Origin: an uncultured Oscillospiraceae bacterium
Lineage (GTDB): Bacteria > Bacillota > Clostridia > Oscillospirales > Oscillospiraceae
Direction of reading: 5' to 3'
Assembly (NCBI GenBank): GCA_934636045.1
Contig: CAKTZP010000024.1
Coordinates: 1-19,980 of the forward strand
Length of the DNA: 19,980 nucleotides
This document shows, piece after piece, positions 5,630 through 19,980 of this stretch. The translations under genes were made by a program, and so were the position numbers. A model generated the notes under the pieces. That model was not told where the DNA came from and did not search any database. It was given only the letters and a program-made list of their open reading frames with translations. Position 1 is the first letter of the stretch; each line of letters opens with the position of its first letter.

Positions 5630-6639
5630 TTCTATCGGTGGAATCCTCCTGCGACGAAACCGCCGTAGCGCTCGTGCGCGACGGCCGCGAGGTCTTGACC
5701 GACCGCATCGCCTCACAGGTCGCGCTGCACCGCCTCTACGGCGGCGTCGTGCCGGAAATCGCCTCGCGCAAGCATATCGAAGCCATCTACGCGCTGGCCG
5801 ACGAGGCGCTGCGCGACGCGGGCGTCACCCGGCGCGATATCGACGCCATTGCCGTTACCTATGCCCCCGGCCTGATCGGCGCGCTGCTGGTCGGCGTGAA
5901 CTTTGCCAAGGCCGCAGCGCTGGCGCTCGGCGTACCCCTCGTCCCCGTCCACCATATCCGCGGCCACATCGCCGCCAATTACATCGCCTACCCCGACCTG
6001 AAGCCCCCGTTTCTTTGCCTCGTCGTCTCCGGCGGGCACACGATGCTCGTCGACGTGCGGGACTACACAAGGATGGAAATTCTCGGCTCCACGCGCGACG
6101 ATGCGGCAGGCGAGAGCTTTGACAAGGTCGCGCGCCTGCTGGATATGCCCTATCCCGGCGGCGCGGCGCTCGACCGCGCGGCGCACAGCGGCGACGAAAC
6201 GCGCTATCCCCTGCCGCACACCAAGCTCAGCGGCAACCCGCTGGATATGTCCTTTTCGGGCTTAAAGACCGCAGCGGTCAACCTGATCCACAACACGCGA
6301 CAGAAGGGCGAGGAGGTCAACGTCCCCGACCTGTGCGCCAGCTTTTCCCGCGCGGTCAGCGAAATGCTCGTCCCGCGCACCATGCTGGCGCTTGACCGGA
6401 CCGGCTACCGGACGCTCGCCGTGGCCGGCGGCGTGGCTGCCAACAGCCGCATCCGCGGCGATCTGACGCGCGAATGCGAGCGCCGCGGCGTCCGCCTGTG
6501 CCTGCCGCCGCTCAGCCTCTGCGGCGACAACGGCGCCATGATCGGCGCGCAGGGCTATTATGAATACTTGGCCGGTAACATTGCTGACCAAACGCTCAAC
6601 GCCTACGCCACCAAGTCGATGGAGGGCGAAACGCTTTGA
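5623..6639 (+). CDS. tsaD: tRNA threonylcarbamoyladenosine transferase TsaD
   Basis: TsaD moves the threonylcarbamoyl group from its AMP adduct to A37 of tRNAs that read ANN codons, working with TsaB and TsaE. The 338 aa length is typical of this ASKHA-fold family. Seen are the N-terminal LSVESSCDETAVALV, YGGVVPEIASRKH, the metal-binding HIRGH (H111 and H115), CLVVSGGHTMLV, FSGLKTA, VAGGVAANS and the C-terminal metal ligand region CGDNGAMIG. The start is fixed by AGGAGCTG about 7 bases upstream, inside rimI, giving a 7-base overlap. It is the last gene of the run that starts with cysE, and a hairpin follows its stop. Confidence 0.97.
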   Translation: MLILSVESSCDETAVALVRDGREVLTDRIASQVALHRLYGGVVPEIASRKHIEAIYALADEALRDAGVTRRDIDAIAVTYAPGLIGALLVGVNFAKAAALALGVPLVPVHHIRGHIAANYIAYPDLKPPFLCLVVSGGHTMLVDVRDYTRMEILGSTRDDAAGESFDKVARLLDMPYPGGAALDRAAHSGDETRYPLPHTKLSGNPLDMSFSGLKTAAVNLIHNTRQKGEEVNVPDLCASFSRAVSEMLVPRTMLALDRTGYRTLAVAGGVAANSRIRGDLTRECERRGVRLCLPPLSLCGDNGAMIGAQGYYEYLAGNIADQTLNAYATKSMEGETL

Positions 6640-6977: not shown

Positions 6978-8162
6978 TCAAATCAAATTCTGCTCCGTCT
7001 CAGGGTCGAAGAGGTGAACCAGAGACGGGTCGAAGGAAAAGCCGATCTGCTTGCCGCCTTGAACGGTGACAAAGTCCAAGCATGCCGTCGGAATGACGGC
7101 AACGACGTCCTGTCCGCCCGCCGTCATATGCAGGTGCAGCTCACTGCCCATCATTTCCGAAACGTCCACCGTGGCCGGGATGCCGTTTTCGTCAATGTGC
7201 AGATGCACCGGGCGGATGCCGAGGATGACCGTGCCTTCACTGCGGCCGGAGGCCAGCAGCTTCTTCTGCTGCTCCTCGCCGAGAACAAAGGTCTTGCCCA
7301 GCAGCTCCACGGCGTATTTTCCGTCCTGCTTGACAAGTCTTGCATCGCGGAAGAAGTTCATCTGCGGCGTGCCGATAAAGCCCGCGACGAACAGGTTCAG
7401 CGGATGGTTAAAGACCTCCTGCGGCGTGCCGATCTGCTGGATGAAGCCGTCGCGCATGATCACGATGCGGTCGCCGAGCGTCATGGCCTCGGTCTGGTCG
7501 TGGGTAACATAGATAAAGGTAGTATTGATTCTCGAACGCAGCTTGATGAGCTCCGCGCGCATTTGGTTGCGCAGCTTAGCGTCGAGGTTCGACAGCGGCT
7601 CGTCCATCAGCAGCACCTGCGGATTGCGGACGATGGCACGGCCGATGGCCACGCGCTGCCGCTGGCCGCCGGAAAGCGCCTTCGGCTTACGGTCGAGGTA
7701 CTCGGTAATGCCGAGGATCTCCGCCGCCTCCATGACCTTGCGCTGAATCTCGTCCTTCGGAACCTTTTTCAGCTTCAGGGAGAAGGCCATGTTCTCATAG
7801 ACCGTCATATGCGGATAAAGGGCATAGTTCTGGAAGACCATGGCGATGTCGCGATCCTTCGGCGCAACGTCGTTGACCAGCCGGTCGCCGATGTACAGCT
7901 CACCGTCGGTGATCTCCTCCAGACCGGCGATCATGCGCAGGGTCGTGGACTTGCCGCAGCCGGACGGGCCGACCAGCACGATAAACTCGCGGTCCTTGAT
8001 GTCCAGCGAGAATTCCTGCACCGCAACGACGCCCTCGTCAGTGATCTGAAGATTGGCCTTGCGCTCCTCAGGCTCGCCCTTTTTCTTCTTCTTTTTCTTC
8101 TCTGTGTTCGGGTAGATCTTCTTGATGTTTTTCAGTGTTACACTTGCCATGCAACCGACCAT
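6978..8162 (-). CDS. Carbohydrate ABC transporter ATPase, MsmK/UgpC type
   Basis: This is the ATP-hydrolysing subunit of a CUT1-type sugar importer. Seen are Walker A GPSGCGKSTT, Q-loop VFQNYALYPHMTVYENMAF, signature LSGGQRQR, Walker B VLLMDEPLSNLD and the H-loop VTHDQTEAM. A C-terminal regulatory TOBE/OB region follows (VFNHPLNLFVAGFIGTPQMNF, VILGIRPVHLH). An unusual charged insert, KKKKKKKGEPEERK, lies between the first strand (SVTLKNIKKIYPN) and the Walker A strand, where relatives have only a short turn. No permease or sugar-binding gene is adjacent, so it is probably a shared ATPase serving several importers, as shown for streptococcal MsmK. ATG at 8162 has GGAGG 10 bases upstream. ATG at 8150 (MASVTL) is closer to the family start but lacks a good ribosome site. 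Confidence 0.93.
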   Translation of the reverse strand: MVGCMASVTLKNIKKIYPNTEKKKKKKKGEPEERKANLQITDEGVVAVQEFSLDIKDREFIVLVGPSGCGKSTTLRMIAGLEEITDGELYIGDRLVNDVAPKDRDIAMVFQNYALYPHMTVYENMAFSLKLKKVPKDEIQRKVMEAAEILGITEYLDRKPKALSGGQRQRVAIGRAIVRNPQVLLMDEPLSNLDAKLRNQMRAELIKLRSRINTTFIYVTHDQTEAMTLGDRIVIMRDGFIQQIGTPQEVFNHPLNLFVAGFIGTPQMNFFRDARLVKQDGKYAVELLGKTFVLGEEQQKKLLASGRSEGTVILGIRPVHLHIDENGIPATVDVSEMMGSELHLHMTAGGQDVVAVIPTACLDFVTVQGGKQIGFSFDPSLVHLFDPETEQNLI

Positions 8163-8333
8163 GAAACGGGAGCCTCCGCTTGCCCGTTCCTCGCGCCCGC
8201 CCGCTTGGGAGCGGCACGCCTTACAGCAGGTCTCCACACTGCTGCACCGCAGGTCCTGCGGAAAAAAGCGTTCTCCTTTCTTGGCGGCTCACGGCTATTT
8301 TTGTGGAGTAGCCGCGCCTACCTTAATATCATA

Positions 8334-10296: not shown

Positions 10297-10647
10297 CTAA
10301 ACTACGCCGTCGAATATCTCGTGAAAGGCGTCGGCGGCATAGGCGCGCACCCGGGCGCAGTATTCCTCATAAGCGGTCAAGAGTTTTTTTGCCTCAGGCG
10401 AGAGCGTTGCACCTCCTCCGTTTTTGCCGCCGGTCGAGGAAACCAGAAGTCGATAGCCGAGGGCGTTTTCGGCATTTTTGATGACCGTCCATGCCTTGGA
10501 ATACGCCATGCACATGGAATTGGCGGCGGCGCGGAGGGAATGATGCTCCTCCACGCGGCGCAGCAGCTCCGCCACGCCGGGGCCGAAGCACTTGGCCTCG
10601 CCCCCAAAGATCCGCACGGACAGTACCGGTCTGAATTTCTGTTCCAT
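10297..10647 (-). CDS. ModE-like molybdenum-type HTH repressor
   Basis: The 116 aa protein consists only of a ModE/LysR-type winged helix domain. Pattern: FGPGVAELLRRVEEHHSLRAAANSMCMAYSKAWTVIKNAE, then the wing STGGKNGGGATLSPEAKKLL, as in the N-terminal DNA-binding half of ModE. It lacks the C-terminal molbindin domains that bind molybdate in E. coli ModE, so its ligand, if any, is unknown. ATG at 10647 is preceded by no Shine-Dalgarno site. A TATAAT box ends only 6 bases before it, so the mRNA should be leaderless. The longer open frame back to 10923 overlaps the divergent yqeC gene and is not real. It faces the selenium-hydroxylase genes and probably regulates them. Confidence 0.85.
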   Translation of the reverse strand: MEQKFRPVLSVRIFGGEAKCFGPGVAELLRRVEEHHSLRAAANSMCMAYSKAWTVIKNAENALGYRLLVSSTGGKNGGGATLSPEAKKLLTAYEEYCARVRAYAADAFHEIFDGVV

Positions 10648-10653
10648 ACGGGT

Positions 10654-10683
10654 ATTATACACGCTTTTCCCGCCCTGCGTCAA
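10654..10683 (-). promoter_or_regulatory. Promoter giving a leaderless mRNA for the ModE-like gene
   Basis: On the minus strand TTGACG (10678-10683) and a perfect TATAAT (10654-10659) are 18 bases apart. Transcription would begin 6-8 bases later, at or within a base or two of the ATG at 10647, leaving no room for a ribosome site. Confidence 0.75.
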
Positions 10684-10723
10684 CGTTTTTCTCAGCTTTT
10701 CGCAAAATCCCTCCCGTCCGCGG

Positions 10724-10752
10724 TTGACGAACGGCGTTCGGCGTGTTATTCT
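10724..10752 (+). promoter_or_regulatory. Promoter of the yqeC-yqeB-selD operon
   Basis: TTGACG (10724-10729) and TATTCT (10747-10752) are 17 bases apart, with a start expected near 10759, just before the GGGAGG ribosome site of yqeC. It stands back to back with the ModE-like gene promoter, so one regulator site could act on both. Confidence 0.65.
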
Positions 10753-10783
10753 ATTAGAAGAATCACGAAGGGAGGCCAAAGGG

Positions 10784-11425
10784 GTGGATTTTTCCCGTTT
10801 GCTGCAAATCCCGCGCGGCGTGACCGCCATCATCGGCAGCGGCGGCAAGACGACGCTGCTGTATCTTCTGGCGCGCGAGCTTTCGCGCACGAGCCGCGTT
10901 ATCGTCACGACCTCAACGCACATTCAGCGGCCGGAGGAGCTGCCCTATTGCGAAGCCGTTGCGGCGGTTTCCGGCCTTAGCGTCGTCGGCACCCCCTGTG
11001 AAAACGGCAAGCTGGCCGCACCGCGCCAGAGCTTTGCCGCGCTGGCAGCGCTGGCCGACTATGTGCTCGTCGAGGCCGACGGCTCCCGCCGTCTGCCGCT
11101 CAAGGCGCACGCACCGCATGAGCCTGTTTTGCCCGAAAACACGGCGCAGGTCATCACCGTCGTCGGCGCGTCCGGCCTGAACCGGCCGATTGCCGAGGTC
11201 GTGCACCGTCCCGAGCGCTTCACCGCCCTGACGGGCAAGACCGACACTGCCACGCCGCAGGCCGTGGCCGCCGCGCTGATTGCCGAGGGGCTGACGCACC
11301 GCGTCGTGATCAACCAAGCCGACCTCCCGGGGCAGCTCGCCCCGGCGCTGGAATTAAAAGCCCTGCTGCCCTACCCAACGGTAGTCGCGGCACTTAAAAA
11401 GGAGGAGCTGCTATGCTCGTATTGA
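10784..11425 (+). CDS. yqeC: Selenium-dependent hydroxylase accessory protein YqeC
   Basis: YqeC is a putative nucleotide-binding protein tied by comparative genomics to selenium-dependent molybdenum hydroxylases. Its exact reaction is not settled. The 213 aa product begins with a P-loop, IIGSGGKTTLL (GSGGKTT at 18-24). It then shows VIVTTSTHIQRPE, YVLVEADGSRRLPLKAHAPHEPVLP (VEADG is the family hallmark) and VVGASGLNRPI. The C-terminal part contains VVINQADLPG, a GTPase-like NxxD stretch. GTG at 10784 is chosen because GAAGGGAGG ends 8 bases upstream; the open frame further left runs through the divergent promoter. It overlaps yqeB by 13 bases. Confidence 0.88.
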   Translation: MDFSRLLQIPRGVTAIIGSGGKTTLLYLLARELSRTSRVIVTTSTHIQRPEELPYCEAVAAVSGLSVVGTPCENGKLAAPRQSFAALAALADYVLVEADGSRRLPLKAHAPHEPVLPENTAQVITVVGASGLNRPIAEVVHRPERFTALTGKTDTATPQAVAAALIAEGLTHRVVINQADLPGQLAPALELKALLPYPTVVAALKKEELLCSY

Positions 11426-12213
11426 TTCGCGGCGCGGGCGACCTCGCATCCGGTATCGCCCTGCGGCTGCACCACGCGGGCTTCCGCGTGGTGATGACCG
11501 ACCTGCCGCGCCCGACGGCCATCCGCCGTACCGTCTGCTTCTCGCAGGCCATTTTGTTTGAAGCCATGCGCGTGGAGGACGTGACCGCCCGCTTCGCGCC
11601 CACGCCGGACGCGGTACCGGAAATTCTGGAAAACCACGAAATCGCCGTCCTCGCCGACCCGGAGGCGGCGTGCATCCCCGTTTTGCGCCCCGACGCAGTC
11701 GTCGACGCCATTCTGGCTAAGCGCAACCTCGGCACCAAAATCACCGATGCGCCCTGCGTCATTGGCGTCGGCCCCGGCTTTACCGCGGGCGTGGACTGCC
11801 ACGCGTGTGTGGAGACCATGCGCGGCCACACGCTCGGCCGCGTCATCACGGATGGCTCGCCCATTCCGAACACCAACATTCCCGGCCTCATCGGCGGCTT
11901 TGCGGGCGAGCGCGTGCTGCGCGCCCCGGCGGACGGCATTTTCCGTCAGCTGCTGGACATCGGCGCGTCCGTCCGGCAGGGTGACGTGGCCGGCACGGTC
12001 GGCGACGCGCCGATGCTCTGCCAGATCGACGGCATGCTGCGCGGCATTCTCGCCGACGGGACGCCTGTGTTCCGCGGCATGAAGGCGGGCGACGTTGACC
12101 CGCGCGGCGTCCGCGAATACTGCGACCTCGTTTCCGACAAGGCGCTGGCCATCGGCGGCGGCGTTTTGGAAGCAATTTTACGTTTTTCGGAGGGTAAAAA
12201 TGGAAGAAATTAA
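11413..12213 (+). CDS. yqeB: Selenium-dependent molybdenum hydroxylase protein YqeB (EF2563 family)
   Basis: YqeB belongs to the family found in genomes that have selD and selenium-type molybdenum hydroxylases. It is thought to help put labile selenium into the molybdenum cofactor site, without proven chemistry. The protein of 266 aa has an N-terminal Rossmann-like nucleotide site, LIRGAGDLASGIA (GAGDLASG 7-14). It continues with VMTDLPRPTAIRRTVCFS, KITDAPCVIGVGPGFTAGVDCHACVET and a C-terminal barrel-like part (ADGIFRQLLDIGASVRQGDVAG). ATG has GGAGGAGCTG just upstream, inside yqeC. The end overlaps selD by 14 bases, so the three genes are coupled. Confidence 0.9.
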   Translation: MLVLIRGAGDLASGIALRLHHAGFRVVMTDLPRPTAIRRTVCFSQAILFEAMRVEDVTARFAPTPDAVPEILENHEIAVLADPEAACIPVLRPDAVVDAILAKRNLGTKITDAPCVIGVGPGFTAGVDCHACVETMRGHTLGRVITDGSPIPNTNIPGLIGGFAGERVLRAPADGIFRQLLDIGASVRQGDVAGTVGDAPMLCQIDGMLRGILADGTPVFRGMKAGDVDPRGVREYCDLVSDKALAIGGGVLEAILRFSEGKNGRN

Positions 12214-13234
12214 ACTGACCAAGCTTGCAAAATGCGCCGGGTGCGGCGCGAAGGTCGGCGCTGGCGTGCTGGCCAAGCTGCTCGACGGCATCAAGGTGCA
12301 CCATGATCCGAACCTGCTTGTCGGCTTCGACAAATCCGACGATGCCTCGGTCTACCGGGTCTCCGACGAGCTTGCGCTCGTCCAGACGGTTGACTTCTTC
12401 CCGCCCATCGACGACGACCCCTACACCTTCGGCCAGATCGCCGCAACGAACGCGCTGTCCGATGTCTACGCCATGGGCGGCGAGCCGAAGTTGGCGCTGA
12501 ACATCATGGCCATTCCCGACTCCCTGCCCAAGGAGGCCGTCCACGCCCTGCTGCGCGGCGGCTATGACAAGGTCTACGAGGCGGGCGCCATCATCACCGG
12601 CGGCCACAGCATCCTCGACGACGAGCCGAAATACGGTCTCGCGGTCACGGGCTTTGTCCATCCGGAAAGGCTCCTGACCAACTCCGGCGCCAAGCCCGGC
12701 GACGTGCTGTTTTTGACCAAGCCGCTCGGCATCGGTGTTTACACCACCGCCGCCAAGGCCGACCTGCTGTCCGAGGACGGCAAAACACTGGCCAAAACGC
12801 TCATGACCACGCTCAACAAGGGCGCACGCGACGTCATGGTGCGCTACCGCGTGCACGCCTGCACGGACGTGACCGGCTTTGCCCTGCTCGGCCACGCGCT
12901 GGAAATGGCGCAGGGCAGCGACACCGAGCTGGAGATCGACACACAGAAGCTCTGCCTCCTGCCAGAGGCGCAGGAGCTTGCCGCCATGGGCATTCTGCCC
13001 GCGGGCGTCTACCGCAACCGCAGCTTTGCCGAGTCCTTCGTCGACCCCGGCAACGTTCCCCTCGCGGTGCAGGACATTCTCTATGACCCGCAAACCTCCG
13101 GCGGTCTTCTGATCGCCGTCGATCCCGCCGACGCCGACGCGCTGGAGCGAGAGCTGCTGCCCGCCGTTCCTGCCGCGCAGCGCATCGGCCGCGTCCGCCC
13201 CTATCAAGGCGGAAAGCGCATTTTCCTGCGCTGA
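12200..13234 (+). CDS. selD: Selenide, water dikinase SelD
   Basis: SelD makes selenophosphate from selenide and ATP, the selenium donor for all known biological selenium uses. The 344 aa length is normal. The catalytic loop near the N-terminus reads KCAGCGAKVGAG, with Cys15 and Lys18 matching the essential Cys and Lys of E. coli SelD; there is a Cys, not selenocysteine. Also seen are LVQTVDFFPPIDDDPYTFGQIAATNALSDVYAMGG (metal and ATP-binding aspartates), GGHSILDDEPKYGLAVTG, TDVTGFALLGHALEMA and the C-terminal DPQTSGGLLIAV. ATG at 12200 has GGAGG 6 bases upstream. No selA, selB or selC lies in the window, and the partners are yqeC and yqeB. Confidence 0.96.
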   Translation: MEEIKLTKLAKCAGCGAKVGAGVLAKLLDGIKVHHDPNLLVGFDKSDDASVYRVSDELALVQTVDFFPPIDDDPYTFGQIAATNALSDVYAMGGEPKLALNIMAIPDSLPKEAVHALLRGGYDKVYEAGAIITGGHSILDDEPKYGLAVTGFVHPERLLTNSGAKPGDVLFLTKPLGIGVYTTAAKADLLSEDGKTLAKTLMTTLNKGARDVMVRYRVHACTDVTGFALLGHALEMAQGSDTELEIDTQKLCLLPEAQELAAMGILPAGVYRNRSFAESFVDPGNVPLAVQDILYDPQTSGGLLIAVDPADADALERELLPAVPAAQRIGRVRPYQGGKRIFLR

Positions 13235-13243
13235 GGTGCCGCC

Positions 13244-14011
13244 ATGGAAAATCGCGGAAGAAGAATTCACGCCATTGAAAAGGCGCTGCATTTGCTCGAC
13301 TGCTTCTGGGCAGCGCACCGCCCGCTGTCGCTCAGCGAGCTGGAAAAAATGACCGGCTGGGCCAAGAGCACCATCCACGGGCTGCTGGCATCGATGCTCG
13401 ATTCCGGCGTCGTCGAGCAGAACGCGTCGGACGGCCGCTACCGGCTGGGCTATCACCTGTTTGAGCTCGGCAATGCCGTCAACCAGAGCTGGGACGTTCC
13501 CGCCATCAGCCGCCGCCATCTGCAAAGCATCGTCGACCGCTTCCACGAGTCCGCTTACCTCGCCCGCCTGTCCGGAGACGAGCTGCTGCTGGCCATCTGC
13601 GAGGAGCCGCACACGGGCTTTCGCATCACCTCGGAGGCCGGAACGCGGCTGCCGCTGCATTGCACGTCGCAGGGCAAGGTCATTCTTGCCAACCTTCCGC
13701 CGCGGGACGCCGAGCGGCTGTTGACCCGCACGCCGCTGCACCCCTACACGCCCAACACCGTCACCGATCCCGCCGTTCTGCTCGGCTCGCTGGCAGAGCT
13801 GCGCAGTCAGGGCTACGCCGAGGAGCTGGAGGAATACAAGGTCGGTCTGCGCTCCGTGGCCGCGCCGATCTACGAGCGCAGCGGCATCTGCCGCTATGCC
13901 ATCGGCATCATCTGTATGGCGGGCGTCGATCCCGAGAGCGTCCGCGCCATGCGCAGCGCCGTGATGGAGGCCTCCGCCGCCGTCTCCGCCGAGATGGGGC
14001 GTATTGGTTGA
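13244..14011 (+). CDS. IclR-family transcriptional regulator
   Basis: The 255 aa protein has an N-terminal winged helix-turn-helix (about 8-70: AIEKALHLLDCFWAAHRPLSLSELEKMTGWAKSTIHGLLASMLDSGVVEQ). The IclR effector-binding domain follows, with GYHLFELGNAV, LPLHCTSQGKVILA and the typical GYAEELEEYKVGLRSVAAPIYERSG. IclR proteins often control catabolic operons with small organic acid or purine-related effectors; the ligand here cannot be read from sequence. It starts 9 bases after selD with GAGGTG before the ATG, so it belongs to the same transcript. I infer that it may control a hydroxylase substrate pathway such as purine breakdown. Confidence 0.9.
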   Translation: MENRGRRIHAIEKALHLLDCFWAAHRPLSLSELEKMTGWAKSTIHGLLASMLDSGVVEQNASDGRYRLGYHLFELGNAVNQSWDVPAISRRHLQSIVDRFHESAYLARLSGDELLLAICEEPHTGFRITSEAGTRLPLHCTSQGKVILANLPPRDAERLLTRTPLHPYTPNTVTDPAVLLGSLAELRSQGYAEELEEYKVGLRSVAAPIYERSGICRYAIGIICMAGVDPESVRAMRSAVMEASAAVSAEMGRIG

Positions 14012-14049
14012 CATAATATTTTATCCTGCGCCGCCCGCGCAAATAGCAA

Positions 14050-14078
14050 CGCCGCGAGGTCAAGCCGGCCTCGCGGCG
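14050..14078 (+). repeat. Hairpin copy A, CGCCGCGAGG stem
   Basis: A perfect 10-bp stem (14050-14059 with 14069-14078) with a 9-base loop lies 38 bases after the IclR stop. The same stem sequence returns at 14336-14364. It may end the selenium operon transcript, although no T-run follows. Confidence 0.7.
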
Positions 14079-14080
14079 CT

Positions 14081-14112
14081 CAGTGTGTCGAAAAACCCTT
14101 TTCGACACACTG
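14081..14112. repeat. Perfect 14-bp hairpin containing GTGTCGAAAA
   Basis: Bases 14081-14094 pair fully with 14099-14112 around a 4-base loop (ACCC). The arm includes GTGTCGAAAAA (14085-14095), also found at 6788-6798 and 19857-19867, each time between genes. Confidence 0.75.
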
Positions 14113-14139
14113 ACAGACTGCAAAAAGTTCGGAAGACAA

Positions 14140-14187
14140 GCAACTCACGCCCGTCGGCGTACAAAGGTACGTTAGGGCGTGAGTTGC
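14140..14187. repeat. 13-bp hairpin with small inner stem
   Basis: Bases 14140-14152 (GCAACTCACGCCC) pair perfectly with 14175-14187. The loop itself contains GTAC ... GTAC, which can form a small inner stem. Its function is unknown. Confidence 0.7.
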
Positions 14188-14335
14188 GCAGTAAGTCAAA
14201 ATTCTTGCGAAGCAAGCTTTTTCTCGGGTTATAAAGTTCAGGATACTCTGTTTTTGCAAAACAAAACACAGAGAACAAAAATCCATTAAAATGGGAACCG
14301 ATTTTGACGGTTACGGACTTTTTTGGCAGTCTGAA

Positions 14336-14364
14336 CGCCGCGAGGTCTTCTTGACCTCGCGGCG
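14336..14364 (-). repeat. Hairpin copy B, CGCCGCGAGGTC stem
   Basis: A perfect 12-bp stem (14336-14347 with 14353-14364) has a 5-base loop. It lies 22 bases beyond the stop of the leftward surface-protein gene and could end that operon, but no T-run follows on the minus strand. It repeats the stem at 14050-14078. Confidence 0.7.
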
Positions 14365-14386
14365 CTGCTGTGTTTTTCCATGTTCT

Positions 14387-17254
14387 TTACTTTGCCATCA
14401 GCTGCTGTGACGCTTTGCGGCTGTGACCTGCAAAGCGGACAAAGTTTGACAGCATCTGCGCGATCTCTGCGCGCGTGGCGTAGCTGCCCGGGCTGAGCGT
14501 CCGCGCGGCGGTGCCGCGGATCAACCCGCTGGCCACCGCCCACTGCACCGCCGAGAGCGCATACTGCGAAACGGCCGCGCGGTCGTCATAGGCCATCAGC
14601 TCGTCGCGCTCGGTGACGTCCATGCCGCACGCCCGCGCAAAGCGATACAAAAACGTCGCCAGCTGCTCGCGCGTCACCGGCTCGTCCGGCGAGAAGGTCG
14701 TCTTGCTCGTGCCTTGGATGATGCCGACCATCGCGCCCCAGTTGACCGCGCCGGCGTACCATGCGTCCTCCGGCACGTCGCGGAAGCCATACGACCAAGT
14801 AAAATCGCGGATGCCGCTCAGATTGGCCAGCACCTTGGCCACCATGGCGCGCGTCGTCGTCGCGTCCGGTGCAAAGGCCGTGTCCGAAACGCCGTTCATC
14901 ACACCGTTCCAGTAGACAAAATGCACCGCGTCGTGGTACCATGCACCGCGCGCAACATCGCGGAAGGGCGTTGTTGCCGTATCCAAAAAGCGGTAGCCGT
15001 TTTCGGCTGCGTACTGCTCGGCGTAGGTGCCGGTCGTGCCGAAGATCGTCAGCGGTGCGTCGCCGCAGAGCTTCGGCGGCAGGGAGCGCACACTCGTCGG
15101 AACGACCAGCTGCGCCAGCCTTGCGGTTTGAGCGTCGGTGAAAAATGCTCCGGGCTCCACGTCGCGCACATTTTCGCCCAGCACGGCGCTGTCCGGATCC
15201 CCCATCGAGCCGGCAGCCAGCCGCGTAACCGGTCTTCCCTCTACCGTGTCCGGCACAACGGCGGAGGCCGCGCCCGCGCTATAGGTCGGCCGGACGTACA
15301 GCGCCGTCAGCTCTGCGCCGTTGCGCGCAAAGACGCCGCTTTTGCTCTGCACCGTTTCCGCGCCTGCAGGAATCGCAAGGAAGCGCAGTCCCTCCGCCGC
15401 AGCAAATTCCTCCGCCTCCGTTCCGGCGTAGCCGAGGAGCACCTCGATACCGTAAAGGTGTGCGTTGGCCGTGCTGCTGCGCCGGAAGGTCGGCGGCAGG
15501 TAGAGCATCTGCAGCTTTTCGCAGCCCGCAAACGGCGTGCCGAGCAAGGTCTCCAGCCCCTCCGGCACAGCCACGAAGGTCAGCTCACTGCACTGCAAAA
15601 ACGCCCAATCCTCCAGAAGACGCAGCGTCTCGGGCAGACGGAATGCCGTTGCCGGACAGCGCGCCAGCGCCGAGTCACAGATGCGTTCGACCGCCGCGCC
15701 CTCCACCGTCGCGGGGATAACGACCTCGCCGGTCAGATACTGCGCCTCCGCGCCGACGACCCACGCCTTGCCGGACGGGAAAATTTTATATTTAATGTGG
15801 TCGAGCATGACGACCCGCGCGCCCGGCCCCTCCTCTCCGGTCAGGAGATTCACAAACGGGATCTCCTCCCGTTTGCAGTAAGCCTCCATCGGGCTGTCCG
15901 GATAGCCGCGCACGCGGCTGACGCTCGAATTTTTCAGGCAACCCTCGCACTGCGTCACCGTTGAGGGCACGGTCAGCTCCAAAAGCGCCGCGTTCCATGC
16001 AAACACCTCCGCGCCCAGCGTTTCCACGCCCTCGGCCAGCGTCACCGCGCGCAGCTGGTTCAGCGCAAATGCCCGCTCGCCGAGACTGCGCAGCGCCGTG
16101 CCGAACACCGCCTCCGTCAGTCCGCAGCCGAGGAAGCTCTCCGCACCCGCGCGCACCAGCGCCGAAAACTGCGGCGTGCCGGTCAGCCGGGTCTCCGCAA
16201 ACGCACCGTCCCCGGCCACGCGCAGCTGCTGCGGCACATTGGCCTGCTTGGCGCAGACCGCGCGCCGCCCAACCGTCCGCACCGTATCTGGCAGGGTCAC
16301 GGTGCCGTATTTTTGACCCGTTTCATAAAAGCACAGCGGCTCCAGCGCCGTCACCGGCGCGCCGTCCAGCGTCTCCGGGACAATCACGTCCCCTTCGCCC
16401 GGGCCGCGCACCACGACCGCCTCGTCACCGATCCGCCGGTATTGCAGCCCGCCGGCCGCACGCAGCGGATACGCCGCCGGGTCATAGTCCAATTCGTCAA
16501 AATAGATCCGATGCGTCGGCTCCTTGATTTCCCGCGCGATCGGCGCACTGCGATGGCAATAGACCGTCTGCACGCCGGAAAACGGCTCGTTTGCACTGCT
16601 CGTTGTTGTGCCGCAGACGAGCAGCTCCTCGATGCGGCAGGGAAACGCCAGACGGCCGATGTATTTGACCGACGCCGGAATGCGCACGCGCATTTGGTCA
16701 GCCAAGCCGAAAAACGCCTGCTCGTCAATGCGCTCAAGCCTCTCCGGCAGCTCCACCGACTGCAGCGCGGCGCCGGCAAAGCACGCCGTACCGATCTCGC
16801 GCAGCCCTGCGGGCAGGCGGATCACCGTCAGCGCCGTATTGGCAAAGGTGCGGCTGCCCAGATAGCGTACGCTCGCCGGAAGCATGATCTCGCCGAGCTG
16901 CGTACAGTCGGCAAACGTCCCGCGCAGCGTCGTCAGTCCCTCCGGCAAAACGGCCTCCGAAAGCCCGCTGCAGCCGCGGAACGCGCCGTCCAGACGCTCC
17001 AGCCCTGCCTCAACGATCACGGAAACCAGCCCCTGCTCGTTTTCAAATGCGCCGTCGGCAACCGCCGTCACAGTGTAGCCGTCGATCGTCTCGGGGATGA
17101 TGAGCTGACCGGTCACCGCGCCGGTCGCGCCCGTGATCGTCGCGTTTCCGTCCACAAGCGTATAGGTCAGCTCCGCCCCTGCCGCGTGCGCCGTCGGCAG
17201 GTAAGCAAGCAGCGCCGCCAAAACCAGCAGCGCTGCAAGAATTCTACGTTTCAC
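14387..17254 (-). CDS. Leucine-rich-repeat (BspA-like) surface protein with SLH anchor
   Basis: The 955 aa protein starts with a signal peptide (basic KRR, hydrophobic ILAALLVLAALLAYLP, cleavage near AHA-AG). A long region follows of BspA-type LRR_5 repeats (about 28-760), with recurring VIPETIDGYTVTAVADGAFEN-like units and patterns such as LPEGLTTLRGTFADCTQL. Three S-layer homology domains end the protein (about 763-815, 822-872 and 887-940), each with a TRA/TRE motif, two opening with FRDV and AWY. SLH domains bind cell wall polysaccharide, so the repeats face outward, probably for adhesion or ligand binding. The likely start is the GTG at 17254, overlapping the blaR1-type stop as GTGA, with GGAGAGG upstream. 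It is the last gene of the BlaI/BlaR1-type operon. Confidence 0.92.
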   Translation of the reverse strand: MKRRILAALLVLAALLAYLPTAHAAGAELTYTLVDGNATITGATGAVTGQLIIPETIDGYTVTAVADGAFENEQGLVSVIVEAGLERLDGAFRGCSGLSEAVLPEGLTTLRGTFADCTQLGEIMLPASVRYLGSRTFANTALTVIRLPAGLREIGTACFAGAALQSVELPERLERIDEQAFFGLADQMRVRIPASVKYIGRLAFPCRIEELLVCGTTTSSANEPFSGVQTVYCHRSAPIAREIKEPTHRIYFDELDYDPAAYPLRAAGGLQYRRIGDEAVVVRGPGEGDVIVPETLDGAPVTALEPLCFYETGQKYGTVTLPDTVRTVGRRAVCAKQANVPQQLRVAGDGAFAETRLTGTPQFSALVRAGAESFLGCGLTEAVFGTALRSLGERAFALNQLRAVTLAEGVETLGAEVFAWNAALLELTVPSTVTQCEGCLKNSSVSRVRGYPDSPMEAYCKREEIPFVNLLTGEEGPGARVVMLDHIKYKIFPSGKAWVVGAEAQYLTGEVVIPATVEGAAVERICDSALARCPATAFRLPETLRLLEDWAFLQCSELTFVAVPEGLETLLGTPFAGCEKLQMLYLPPTFRRSSTANAHLYGIEVLLGYAGTEAEEFAAAEGLRFLAIPAGAETVQSKSGVFARNGAELTALYVRPTYSAGAASAVVPDTVEGRPVTRLAAGSMGDPDSAVLGENVRDVEPGAFFTDAQTARLAQLVVPTSVRSLPPKLCGDAPLTIFGTTGTYAEQYAAENGYRFLDTATTPFRDVARGAWYHDAVHFVYWNGVMNGVSDTAFAPDATTTRAMVAKVLANLSGIRDFTWSYGFRDVPEDAWYAGAVNWGAMVGIIQGTSKTTFSPDEPVTREQLATFLYRFARACGMDVTERDELMAYDDRAAVSQYALSAVQWAVASGLIRGTAARTLSPGSYATRAEIAQMLSNFVRFAGHSRKASQQLMAK

Positions 17255-18711
17255 GGTGTGTCTTCCTCTCCGTTGAGAAGCCACGACAGGTCGCCCGCCG
17301 GGCCATTGTTCGGATTGATGTCGATCTGCGGCTGGTAATCCTCGCCCAAGAACGACGCCTTCCGGTCTTCGTCCACGGCCGTGGCCTGCACCGTGACCGT
17401 CGCCACAAGCATGCTGCCCGAGCCGTTGTCACAATAAAGATTCGCCGTGCCGCTGCCATAGGCGCAGAGCGTGTATTCCAGCGTGCCGTCTATGGCCTCG
17501 GAATAGCACTCGATGGCCAGCACCGACGGCTGGTCTGATACCAGCCGCGCAGCCGTATCCCCCGTCAGCGTCACGTAGAGCATTGTTCCGGGCGTCACCG
17601 ACGACGGGATCGCCGAGATGTGCACCGCGTCTGCGGGTTCCTCGGGTCTCTCCGGCTCGGTCGGCTCGCTGGCGTCGGCCTCGTTATCCTCCGTCCTCTC
17701 GACTGCCGTCACCGGCTGCGTCTGCTCCGGCCGGTTGTCCTCCTTCGCCGTCTCCTGCTGTGTGGCAGGCTCGGTCATCTTCTTCGTCGTCAAACGCGGA
17801 ATATCGACTTTTTCCGCCGCTGCGCTGACCGTCAAAAAGCCCATGCATGCCATGACCACCGTCACGATGCCGAGCATCACGCTCAGCGCGGGGCGAACCT
17901 TCGCCTTGGCCAGTGCCTTCAAGCGCTTTGCCGTGCTGTTGACGGAAAAGCCGGTCTGCAGCACGCCGCCAAAGGTGCGGTCTCGCTCGGTTTCCACCAG
18001 AGTCCGGGCATATTGCACCTTGCCGCCCTTTCCCAACGCGCGGACGACCGCCGCGTCGCAGCGCATTTCCATATCCTGTGACGCGAGATACAGCATCAGC
18101 CACACCGCGGGATTGAACCAGTGCACGCAGCAGACCGTCAGCAGCAGTCCCTTAAACAGGACGTCCCGGTGGCGGATATGCGTGCGCTCGTGCGCCAGAA
18201 CCTGCGTCAGCTTCTGCCCGTCGTGCCAGTCAAAGTCCGCCGGGAGCAGAATGACCGGACGGAGCACGCCGTAGGTCAGCGGCGAGGCCAGCCCATCGAG
18301 CATGCGCACATTTGCCGCAACGCCCGCCTGCTCTGGCATCGGCACAGAAAAGCGAAAGGAGCGACGCAGCCGCACATGCGACACGGCAAAGCCGATCAGG
18401 AGCGCCGCCGCCACAGCCATCCAGACCCACGGCAGCAGGCGCAGCAGGGACGCATTGCTCTGCACCGGGGTCAGCTCCGTCGGCTGCACAATCGAGCGCA
18501 CCGCCGTCGCGGCAAAATTCTGCTCGCTCTGCGCGGGCAGCGCGATCTGCACCCCCGTGGGAATAAACACCGGCACGAGCAGCCGCAGTGCTGCGATCGC
18601 CCACAGGGTGAGGAACACACTGCGGTGCACCCGCCGCTGCAGCAGCAGCCGCAGCAGGGTGATCATGCCAATCATCCCTGCGCCGATCAGGCTCATTCGT
18701 AACAGCGTCAT
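17251..18711 (-). CDS. BlaR1-type M56 membrane protease with Ig-like sensor
   Basis: This 486 aa protein has the BlaR1/MecR1 layout. Hydrophobic segments lie near 7-24, 31-52, 91-112 and 278-298. A cytoplasmic M56 zinc protease has HERTH at 174-178 and the third ligand candidate E215 in QDMEMRCD. In BlaR1 this protease is switched on by an outside signal and leads to BlaI cleavage. The outside part differs: after a Glu/Thr/Pro-rich linker (about 308-360) comes a small Ig-like beta domain (about 362-445, ISAIPSSVTPGTMLYVTL to VATVTVQA). It has no penicillin-binding domain and no SxxK active site, so beta-lactam is not the expected signal. ATG overlaps the blaI-type stop by 4 bases, and its stop overlaps the surface-protein start. 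Confidence 0.9.
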   Translation of the reverse strand: MTLLRMSLIGAGMIGMITLLRLLLQRRVHRSVFLTLWAIAALRLLVPVFIPTGVQIALPAQSEQNFAATAVRSIVQPTELTPVQSNASLLRLLPWVWMAVAAALLIGFAVSHVRLRRSFRFSVPMPEQAGVAANVRMLDGLASPLTYGVLRPVILLPADFDWHDGQKLTQVLAHERTHIRHRDVLFKGLLLTVCCVHWFNPAVWLMLYLASQDMEMRCDAAVVRALGKGGKVQYARTLVETERDRTFGGVLQTGFSVNSTAKRLKALAKAKVRPALSVMLGIVTVVMACMGFLTVSAAAEKVDIPRLTTKKMTEPATQQETAKEDNRPEQTQPVTAVERTEDNEADASEPTEPERPEEPADAVHISAIPSSVTPGTMLYVTLTGDTAARLVSDQPSVLAIECYSEAIDGTLEYTLCAYGSGTANLYCDNGSGSMLVATVTVQATAVDEDRKASFLGEDYQPQIDINPNNGPAGDLSWLLNGEEDTP

Positions 18712-19073
18712 TCCGCCGCTGCCTCCAGCTCGCTGAGCTGCTGATAAAGCTTCTTCAGCTGCTTAAGGCTCAGCTTCTTCTGCCCCACCAGCGCAGCGAC
18801 AAGCACATCCGCCGAGCCATGGTAATTGTTCTGCAGCAGCTCGTCAGTCTCCCACTCCGCTGCCTGTTCGCGGGTAATGGCCGCGCTGCACCGATAGGCA
18901 GGCTCCTGCCTATGCAGCAGCCGCTTGCCCTCGCAGCGGGAAAGCATCGTATAAGAGGTCGTCTTGCTCCAGCCGACCCGGTTTTTCAGCTCCACCGCGA
19001 TATCCTTTGCGGTCATATTGTCCTGTTCCCACAGAACCTCCATCACCTTGCGTTCCGCCTCTGTCAGGTGCAT
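18708..19073 (-). CDS. BlaI/MecI-type transcriptional repressor
   Basis: The 121 aa length and pattern are those of the BlaI/MecI/CopY family. A winged helix runs LTEAERKVMEVLWEQDNMTAKDIAVELKNRVGWSKTTSYTMLSRCEGKRLLHRQEPAYRCSAAITREQAA, followed by a C-terminal dimerisation part (LVAALVGQKKLSLKQLKKLYQQLSELEAAAE). In known systems the dimer blocks its own operon until the paired M56 protease triggers its cleavage. ATG at 19073 has GGGAG 8 bases upstream; the frame stays open further left, but that part covers the promoter. It overlaps the protease gene by 4 bases (ATGA) and leads the three-gene operon. Confidence 0.94.
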   Translation of the reverse strand: MHLTEAERKVMEVLWEQDNMTAKDIAVELKNRVGWSKTTSYTMLSRCEGKRLLHRQEPAYRCSAAITREQAAEWETDELLQNNYHGSADVLVAALVGQKKLSLKQLKKLYQQLSELEAAAE

Positions 19074-19101
19074 AACGTTCACTCCCTTCTTCACTGTCCT
19101 T

Positions 19102-19130
19102 ATTTTACCAGCCTTACCATGTCTTGTCAA
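19102..19130 (-). promoter_or_regulatory. Promoter of the BlaI/BlaR1-type/LRR-SLH operon
   Basis: On the minus strand a perfect TTGACA (19125-19130) and TAAAAT (19102-19107) are 17 bases apart, 29 bases before the ATG. TGGTAAGG and TGGTAAAA are a direct repeat inside or beside the spacer and -10 box and could be part of an operator. I see no clear TACA-TGTA type BlaI site. Confidence 0.75.
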
Positions 19131-19177
19131 TGGATTTTCGGAGAAAAACCCGACATCCTTTCGCATTTTTCCGACGC

Positions 19178-19206
19178 TTGCATAATGACACGCGTTGTGC
19201 TATAAT
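19178..19206 (+). promoter_or_regulatory. Promoter of the TetR-family gene
   Basis: TTGCAT (19178-19183) and a perfect TATAAT (19201-19206) are 17 bases apart. Transcription would start near 19213, 42 bases before the ATG. It is divergent from the BlaI-type operon promoter. Confidence 0.7.
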
Positions 19207-19254
19207 ATGGCTGTGGTGTTCGGCCGCTAAACCAGCTCCAACGGAGGTCAAGAG

Positions 19255-19812
19255 ATGGCAAATTTTACAAAAAAAGCGATCAAGGAATCCTTTTTGAAGC
19301 TGCTCAACGAGAAGCCGATGAGCAAGATTACCGTGCGCGACATCGTCGAGGACTGCGGCATCAACCGTAACTCCTTTTATTATCACTATCAGGACATTCC
19401 CGCCCTGCTTGAAAGCATTGTGGAGGAGGCCACCGCAGAGACCATTGCCCGCTATCCGCGCATCAACTCGCTGGAGGAGTGCTTTCAGGCCGTTTTTTCC
19501 TTTGCCGTCAAAAATAAGCGCGCGGTTTATCACATTTTCCATTCCGTCAACCGCGACGTTTTTGACCGCGAGCTGCTCAAGCTCTGCAGCTATGCCGTAA
19601 CGACCTATGTCGACACCGTCTTCCCCGAGCACCATCTCGACGAGGCCGAGCGTGCGCGGGCCATCCGCTTCATCCAGTGCGAGTTTTTCGGTCTGATCAT
19701 CGAATGGCTCAACAGCGGCATGCGCAGCGACGCCGTTGAAGACCTCCACCATATCGCTGCCCTCTGCAAAGAGCTCCCTGCCATTCTTCCCGAGGAGCTG
19801 CAGACCACCTGA
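19255..19812 (+). CDS. TetR-family transcriptional regulator
   Basis: The 185 aa protein begins with a TetR helix-turn-helix (about 4-52: TKKAIKESFLKLLNEKPMSKITVRDIVEDCGINRNSFYYHYQDIPALLESI). The C-terminal helical ligand domain has VKNKRAVYHIFHSV, FDRELLKLCSYAVTTYVDTVF and FIQCEFFGLIIEWLNSGM. This resembles the DhaS-like branch with a short C-terminal domain. Its target and ligand are unknown. ATG has GGAGG 9 bases upstream. It is transcribed away from the BlaI-type operon and stands alone before a terminator-like hairpin, so it may regulate itself and perhaps a gene outside the window. Confidence 0.92.
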   Translation: MANFTKKAIKESFLKLLNEKPMSKITVRDIVEDCGINRNSFYYHYQDIPALLESIVEEATAETIARYPRINSLEECFQAVFSFAVKNKRAVYHIFHSVNRDVFDRELLKLCSYAVTTYVDTVFPEHHLDEAERARAIRFIQCEFFGLIIEWLNSGMRSDAVEDLHHIAALCKELPAILPEELQTT

Positions 19813-19825
19813 ATTCCAAAAAAAC

Positions 19826-19852
19826 ACGCCCTGATGTGCAGCATCAGGGCGT
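19826..19852. terminator. Intrinsic terminator, strongest leftward
   Basis: Bases 19826-19836 pair with 19842-19852 (11 bp, 5-base loop), 13 bases after the TetR stop. On the minus strand the stem is followed by a run of seven T, so it should stop a leftward transcript entering from beyond 19980. On the plus strand only two T follow, so it ends the TetR mRNA less strongly. Confidence 0.75.
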
Positions 19853-19874
19853 TGGCGTGTCGAAAAACTACCCC

Positions 19875-19974
19875 GCATGTCATTGCGAAGGCGCAGCCGT
19901 TGGCGACGAAGGAGCCTTGCGGATGCGGGCTCTCCGCTTGCCGGTCGGAGCGAAGCGACGTGGCAATCTTATGC
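19875..19974. repeat. Interspersed repeat of the GTCATTGCGA ... TGGCAATCT type
   Basis: The segment begins GCATGTCATTGCGAAGG and ends CGTGGCAATCTTATGC, with ends that are imperfect inverted copies of each other (19875-19886 with 19963-19974). Short repeats with these CATTGCGA and TGGCAATCT ends are found dispersed between genes in many bacteria. An inner inverted repeat CCGCAT/ATGCGG is also present. It may extend past the window. Confidence 0.65.
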
Positions 19975-19980
19975 AGGCAG

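What the first reader, a model, noticed from the sequence alone, without database searches (positions are those of the whole stretch)
14387..19073. Three-gene operon placing a giant LRR-SLH surface protein under proteolytic repressor control
The repressor, protease and LRR-SLH genes overlap by 4 bases at both junctions (ATGA at 18708-18711; GTGA at 17251-17254) behind a single strong promoter. This implies strict co-expression and suggests that the surface protein is the output, or even part of the sensing complex, for example by touching the Ig-like sensor outside the membrane. I know of no described system with this composition. This is the best candidate for an undescribed system in the window.
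Basis: partly seen in the sequence, partly recalled or inferred. Interest (0 to 1): 0.78.

Follow-up and report, generated by a model that had tools for sequence, protein, structure and literature searches.

The report
BlaI-M56 operon driving a surface protein
In some uncultured Clostridia, a repressor and a membrane protease of the kind that normally switches on penicillin resistance sit instead in one operon with a protein predicted to stick to the outside of the cell wall, and relatives keep this wiring while changing the outer part of that protein.

Summary
BlaI (18708-19073), an M56 protease with an Ig-like ectodomain (17251-18711) and an LRR_5 + 3xSLH protein (14387-17254) overlap by 4 nt at both junctions behind one 11/12 sigma-70-like promoter.

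In one M56 clade, 6 of 11 BlaI-M56 units have an SLH gene within 60 nt downstream, against 1 of 31 outside it (p = 5e-4). L001 and L002 repeat the whole triple with both overlaps. What is kept is the SLH anchor; other partners carry WG or Big_2 regions, and LRR-SLH homologues also occur without BlaI-M56.

A dyad, TCTA-N6-TAGA, marks the blaI start region in 6 of 9 other clade loci; the window lacks it and has only an imperfect, untested dyad beside its -35.

Best reading: an autorepressed, protease-released switch dedicated to a wall-bound protein, BlaR1/BlaI-like but without a penicillin-binding sensor. Repression, proteolysis and the signal are inferred. A short M56 tail is better conserved than the protease core. 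New variant of a known kind.

The parts
19102..19130 (-). sigma-70-like promoter TTGACA-17-TAAAAT (TG before the -10) for the operon
   Evidence: 11 of 12; no TCTA-N6-TAGA here
19132..19150 (-). imperfect inverted repeat (8-nt arms, 1 mismatch, 3-nt spacer) just upstream of the -35: candidate operator, untested
   Evidence: no shuffle control was made for it
18708..19073 (-). BlaI/MecI-type winged-helix repressor, 121 aa
   Evidence: (PF03965 3.2e-22); recognition-helix region WSKTTSYTM
17251..18711 (-). M56 (BlaR1-type) membrane metalloprotease with a non-penicillin-binding ectodomain, 486 aa
   Evidence: PF05569 2.2e-39, the only Pfam hit; S. aureus BlaR1
18178..18192 (-). zinc motif HERTH (residues 174-178)
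   Evidence: H174, E175, H178 and E215 invariant in the 17 rows of A1; HExxH in the 7 M56 proteins checked
17389..17625 (-). Ig-like extracytoplasmic domain (residues 363-441) after a P/E/T-rich linker
   Evidence: topology inferred from BlaR1
17269..17322 (-). conserved C-terminal tail of M56 (residues 464-481)
   Evidence: 24 of 57 homologues printed; 66% identity to the L001-type; Ig 26%, core 50%
14387..17254 (-). BspA-type LRR_5 protein with three C-terminal SLH domains and a signal-peptide-like N-terminus, 955 aa, GTG start
   Evidence: (mean pLDDT 84.5); signal peptide judged by eye
14435..15004 (-). SLH triplet (residues 751-940), predicted wall anchor
   Evidence: Sap SLH 3pyw TMt 0.85; SpaA-SLH with pyruvylated glycan 7sv4 TMt 0.78
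14336..14364 (.). 12-bp hairpin after the LRR-SLH stop, possible terminator (perhaps shared with convergent plus-strand genes)
   Evidence: read by eye; no good T-run on the minus strand and not among the terminator-like hits

Best explanation
A self-contained, inducible surface-protein cassette. BlaI represses the single promoter of its own operon. The M56 protein spans the membrane with its zinc protease inside and a stalk, an Ig-like domain and a short C-terminal tail outside. When the outer part meets its cue (probably a state of the wall or surface layer, since it is not a penicillin-binding domain) the protease cleaves BlaI. Transcription rises and, through the overlapping stop/start codons, the LRR-SLH protein is made in step with its sensor and anchored to wall polymer by its SLH domains. 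Shown by sequence: composition, overlaps, one consensus promoter, conserved order, and in several relatives a dyad at the blaI promoter. Inferred: repression and cleavage (from the BlaI/BlaR1 families), surface location (signal peptide, SLH), the nature of the cue.
For: Overlaps, domains, one consensus promoter on the minus strand. The triple with both 4-nt overlaps recurs in L001 and L002 with a homologous LRR-SLH (37% over 966 columns for L001), and BlaI-M56-SLH with both 4-nt overlaps in L006. 6 of 11 clade units against 1 of 31 outside have SLH within 60 nt downstream, p = 5.4e-4; clade support 100/100. Strict dyad TTCTA-N6-TAGAAT in 10 genomes: one hit each in G001, G002, G005 and G170, all four at the blaI promoter; the reversed control pattern gave 3 hits, so the position and not the number is the evidence. 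PDB matches to S. aureus BlaR1. BlaR1 cleaves BlaI directly (PMC9834060, abstract read). In Clostridium thermocellum the BlaI_1845 regulon is one operon, its own (PMC8457756, section 25 read).
Against: The window's promoter lacks the dyad found in relatives, as do L003, L068 and L069; only an imperfect repeat lies near it. LRR-SLH homologues stand without BlaI-M56 at five fetched places. L004, L005 and L068 have no SLH neighbour on the same strand (L005 is a 3793-nt contig). The tree's own label test gave no sign of clustering of the SLH labels among the nine labelled rows, which all lie in the clade. No expression data.
Confidence: 0.6

Rival explanations
1. Feedback sensor: the LRR-SLH protein is also the ligand. 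Its arrival at, or loss from, the wall is read by the M56 tail or Ig domain, so the cassette holds the amount of surface coat constant.
For: The tail (residues 464-481) is the best-conserved part of M56 between the window and the L001-type (66%; core 50%, Ig 26%, linker 16%, means over six L001-type rows). It is present in WIN, L001 and L002, whose M56 overlaps an LRR-SLH gene, and absent in the M56 proteins of L003-L007 and L068-L070 (read by eye). It is in 24 of 57 homologues printed, the 24 closest full-length ones, the window's own sequence included.
Against: Only two lineages carry the tail; it could serve M56 folding or translational coupling. L006 and L070 have overlapping SLH partners without it. 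No binding evidence and no complex was modelled.
Confidence: 0.15
2. Coincidental neighbour: BlaI-M56 pairs moved into SLH gene arrays, and the LRR-SLH gene is expressed mainly on its own terms.
For: SLH genes are abundant and clustered. In L003 a gap of 665 nt separates M56 from a tandem LRR-SLH array; in L069 and for the first pair of L007 the nearest SLH gene lies upstream.
Against: 4-nt overlaps in WIN, L001, L002 and L006 and an 11-nt overlap in L070; no consensus promoter inside M56 ahead of the partner gene in WIN, L001 or L006; L070 has one 9/12 match at 6548-6577 across the junction; L002 was not scanned. Enrichment p = 5.4e-4.
Confidence: 0.15
3. Classical beta-lactam response: the operon answers penicillins and the SLH protein is a wall-protection effector.
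For: BlaI and M56 belong to the families that do this. A peptidoglycan fragment is reported as trigger in Bacillus licheniformis (PMC3305447; title and start of abstract seen in the listing).
Against: No transpeptidase or beta-lactamase domain in the window's M56; ectodomain is an Ig fold of about 80 residues; no beta-lactamase or penicillin-binding domain in the 18 window ORFs scanned with Pfam.
Confidence: 0.07

Closest known systems
BlaR1-BlaI / MecR1-MecI of staphylococci and bacilli
   Same: Repressor family, M56 protease family with HExxH, membrane part plus ectodomain, BlaI and M56 adjacent
   Different: No penicillin-binding sensor; output gene is a wall-anchored LRR protein, not blaZ or mecA; below NCBIfam cut-offs (M56 65.7 bits against 400 for blaR1_generic; BlaI 61.8 against 121.95 for CopY_TcrY)
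Clostridium thermocellum BlaI_1845 and BlaI_0696 operons (PMC8457756)
   Same: Clostridial BlaI, BlaR1-like protein and extra genes in an autoregulated operon; small regulon; operator core TCTAT (GTCTAT inverted repeats five nucleotides apart)
   Different: Extra genes there are hypothetical, one put down as peptidoglycan synthesis; 's-layer' does not occur in the text; spacer differs from TCTA-N6-TAGA
BspA-type LRR_5 proteins and SLH wall-anchored proteins
   Same: LRR_5 repeats (PDB 4gt6, 4fs7, 4cp6) and SLH triplet like Sap and SpaA
   Different: Here directly behind a BlaI-M56 pair; homologues in L138-L142 are not

Membership tests
BlaI/MecI repressor family (PF03965) | Full-length Penicillinase_R match | tested here: met
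   79.5 bits, cut-off 22.6, profile 1-114 of 115
BlaI/MecI repressor family (PF03965) | Dyad operator at its own promoter | tested here: inconclusive
   Window has no TCTA-N6-TAGA, which 6 of the 9 other clade loci with BlaI have near the blaI ORF start; it has an imperfect 8-nt-arm repeat with 1 mismatch beside the -35, not controlled
BlaR1/MecR1 beta-lactam sensor | M56 protease with HExxH | tested here: met
BlaR1/MecR1 beta-lactam sensor | C-terminal penicillin-binding sensor domain | tested here: not met
   Only PF05569 found; ectodomain Ig-like
BlaR1/MecR1 beta-lactam sensor | Signal-dependent cleavage of BlaI | not testable with these tools
   Needs biochemistry
SLH wall-anchored proteins | Three SLH repeats | tested here: met
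   PF00395, three stretches; fold matches to SLH-glycan complexes
SLH wall-anchored proteins | Secretion signal and binding to wall polymer | not tested
   Signal peptide judged by eye; binding needs biochemistry
BspA-type LRR_5 proteins | LRR_5 repeats | tested here: met
   PF13306 154 bits, four stretches

The most novel reading that the evidence does not exclude
An undescribed class of surface-remodelling switch: BlaI-M56 pairs without a penicillin sensor act as dedicated one-operon controllers of SLH-anchored proteins with interchangeable ectodomains (LRR, WG, Big_2), and a short C-terminal peptide of the protease reads its own SLH product on the wall, giving homeostatic control of the surface coat.
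Probability: 0.15. Interest if true: 0.8.

Novelty: new variant of a known kind. Interest (0 to 1): 0.52.

Why it matters
BlaI-M56 pairs were common in the genomes sampled here (42 units counted) and are usually thought of as beta-lactam resistance regulators (recalled). This cassette suggests that one branch controls surface architecture instead. It gives a testable answer to what BlaI-M56 pairs without a penicillin-binding sensor do, and a handle on when Clostridia with dozens of SLH domains display a particular surface protein.

Tried and rejected
Tested and dropped or weakened: (1) That the LRR partner is what is conserved: relatives carry WG-SLH and Big_2-SLH in that place and GDSL-SLH upstream, and LRR-SLH homologues occur without BlaI-M56 in the 9-17 kb fetched around them. 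(2) A TCTA-N6-TAGA operator in the window: absent; an exhaustive look at 19040-19200 gave no perfect dyad with arms of 6 or more, only imperfect ones. (3) Conservation of the divergent TetR gene: the long minus-strand ORFs upstream in L001 and L002 are not TetR-sized (ORFs only). (4) The full M56 model: mean pLDDT 53.5, so only the Ig domain and protease core were used. (5) Classical beta-lactam sensing: no sensor domain found.

Rows dropped: six M56 rows without an HExxH[IVL] match were left out of the tree (L082, L083_4551, L100, L101, L102, P0033). L008-L011 (outside, A1 155-165 bits) were not in the counts; one search shows no A2 match in them. L088 repeats L004. One search leaves out units with under 150 nt downstream (L080, L083) and M56 genes without a BlaI partner. 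The Fisher p used a looser either-side count (10 of 13 against 3 of 31) typed by hand; I rely. Its binomial values use background rates that I assumed. L001 and L002 are near-identical (LRR-SLH 96%), so p-values are optimistic. Gene calls in GC-rich loci are mechanical ORFs.

Full report
What is there. On the minus strand three genes overlap by four bases at each junction: a BlaI-type repressor (18708-19073), an M56 membrane protease (17251-18711) and a 955-aa LRR_5 + 3xSLH protein (14387-17254). One consensus promoter (TTGACA-17-TAAAAT, 11 of 12, TG before the -10) lies just upstream of blaI; the only other promoter-like site in 13500-19980 is on the plus strand. A divergent TetR-family gene (19255-19812, plus) starts 181 bp away. 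A 12-bp hairpin follows the last stop (14336-14364, read by eye; weak T-run).

The proteins. H174, E175, H178 and E215 of M56 are invariant in the 17 aligned rows. The best PDB matches by fold and the only ones by sequence are S. aureus BlaR1. No penicillin-binding domain was found. After the last predicted membrane helix come a P/E/T-rich linker, an Ig-like domain (residues about 363-441, pLDDT about 80) and a C-terminal tail; the rest of that model is poor (mean pLDDT 53.5). The LRR-SLH model is good (mean pLDDT 84.5). Its SLH triplet matches SLH domains solved with pyruvylated glycans, and its repeats match BspA-type LRR proteins.

Is the order kept? The one scan of genome contigs gave 11 loci from uncultured Clostridia and Oscillospiraceae. 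L001 and L002 repeat BlaI-M56-LRR/SLH with both 4-nt overlaps. L001's LRR-SLH (884 aa) aligns over 966 columns with the window's at 37% identity, M56 at 37-40%, BlaI at 54%. L006 has BlaI-M56-SLH with both 4-nt overlaps, but its partner matches WG repeats (37.6 bits, cut-off 25.6) instead of LRR. L070 has a partner of the same kind with an 11-nt overlap, and the two WG-SLH proteins are 33% identical over 711 columns. L007 holds two BlaI-M56 pairs, a GDSL-SLH gene before them and, 42 nt after the second pair, a Big_2-SLH gene followed by an LRR-SLH gene. L003 has a 665-nt gap and then tandem LRR-SLH genes. L069 has an LRR-SLH gene upstream of blaI on the same strand.

Controls. A tree of 71 M56 cores puts all these, with L004, L005 and L068, in one clade (40 rows, 100/100, branch 1.03), apart from the other 31 rows. 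In the clade 6 of 11 BlaI-M56 units have an SLH gene at most 60 nt downstream on the same strand, and 7 of 11 within 700 nt; outside it 1 of 31 in both cases (Fisher p = 5.4e-4 and 8.8e-5). The tree's own label test (nine labelled rows, all inside the clade) showed no clustering of the labels and is uninformative for this question. L004 (no BlaI either), L005 (a DUF4234 gene follows; contig of 3793 nt) and L068 have no SLH gene on the same strand. Homologues of the LRR-SLH protein at over 570 bits occur without BlaI-M56 at five places in four genomes, three of them matching only the C-terminal half of the model. At E <= 1e-78 the M56 search met 6 of 400 genomes sampled from the family, 3 of them clade members (G003, G004, G170), so the clade is rare in that sample at that threshold.

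Operator. TCTA-N6-TAGA lies between 160 nt upstream and 60 nt downstream of the listed blaI ORF start in 6 of the 9 other clade loci: L001, L002, L005, L006 (twice), L007 (both copies), L070; not in L003, L068, L069. It is also there in 8 of 33 units outside the clade, each time as a pair 26-29 nt apart. In L001, L006 and L070 it overlaps the predicted -10 box, and by eye also in L002 and L005. The stricter TTCTA-N6-TAGAAT was searched in 10 whole genomes: one hit each in G001, G002, G005 and G170, each at the blaI promoter, none in the other six. The reversed control gave 3 hits, so it is the position of the hits that counts. C. thermocellum BlaI proteins bind a similar core, and one of them regulates only its own operon (PMC8457756, section 25). 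The window's promoter has no such dyad; the nearest thing is an imperfect repeat (8-nt arms, one mismatch) at 19132-19150, directly upstream of the -35, for which I made no control. For the window, autorepression therefore rests mainly on family knowledge.

The tail. Between the window and six L001-type homologues the mean identity is 50% in the membrane/protease core, 16% in the linker, 26% in the Ig domain and 66% in the tail (17 columns). The motif is in 24 of the 57 homologues printed (the window's own sequence included), and by eye in none of the M56 proteins of L003-L007 and L068-L070. This is why I hold open that the tail, rather than the Ig domain, touches the partner or another fixed target. 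Two lineages are too few to prove it.

How it most likely works. BlaI holds the promoter down; an outside cue read by the stalked ectodomain activates the protease; BlaI is cut; sensor and surface protein are made together. Direct cleavage of BlaI by BlaR1 is reported for S. aureus (PMC9834060, abstract); here it is inference. The cue is unknown; a wall or surface-layer state is my guess.

Literature. Six searches for this composition returned 1, 1, 0, 2, 0 and 3 papers, none on it as judged from titles and abstract starts. One search was broader (40 papers, 20 listed) and gave the two papers I opened; one search gave one unrelated paper. Papers outside that open-access library could describe it.

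Verdict. The idea that the LRR protein is part of the sensor is untested. I rate it a new variant of a known regulatory kind, worth a specialist's attention, not a new kind of system.

Noticed in passing
window 8145-8326 (-): malK-I RNA motif (RF03069, 121.9 bits) at the 5' end of a MalK-like ABC ATPase ORF 6978-8237 (-).
   Followed up: no
window 10592-14011 (+): YqeC, YqeB (selenium-dependent molybdenum cofactor), an AIR-synthase-related protein and an IclR regulator in a row.
   Followed up: no
L072, L073, L074, L080, L083, L086, L098, L099, blaI promoters: Paired TCTA-N6-TAGA dyads 26-29 nt apart outside the clade, reminiscent of the paired inverted repeats reported for C. thermocellum BlaI.
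   Followed up: partly
BlaI alignment: BlaI proteins with the TCTA dyad have [K/S/A/R/P]-K-or-T TTTYT-like recognition-helix regions, while the NxNTTYT group lacks the dyad; a possible specificity code, though some KTTxYT members (WIN, L003, L068, L069) also lack it.
   Followed up: partly
P0030, P0036, P0037, P0040, P0043, P0044, L005 M56 C-termini: Another M56 group ends in its own conserved short tail (like YGFPIIDLETGYVGFP), so conserved C-terminal peptides may be general in these M56 proteins.
   Followed up: no
L001 12283-14079: A second LRR-SLH gene (598 aa) starts 44 nt after the first on the same strand, so the L001 operon may have a fourth gene.
   Followed up: no
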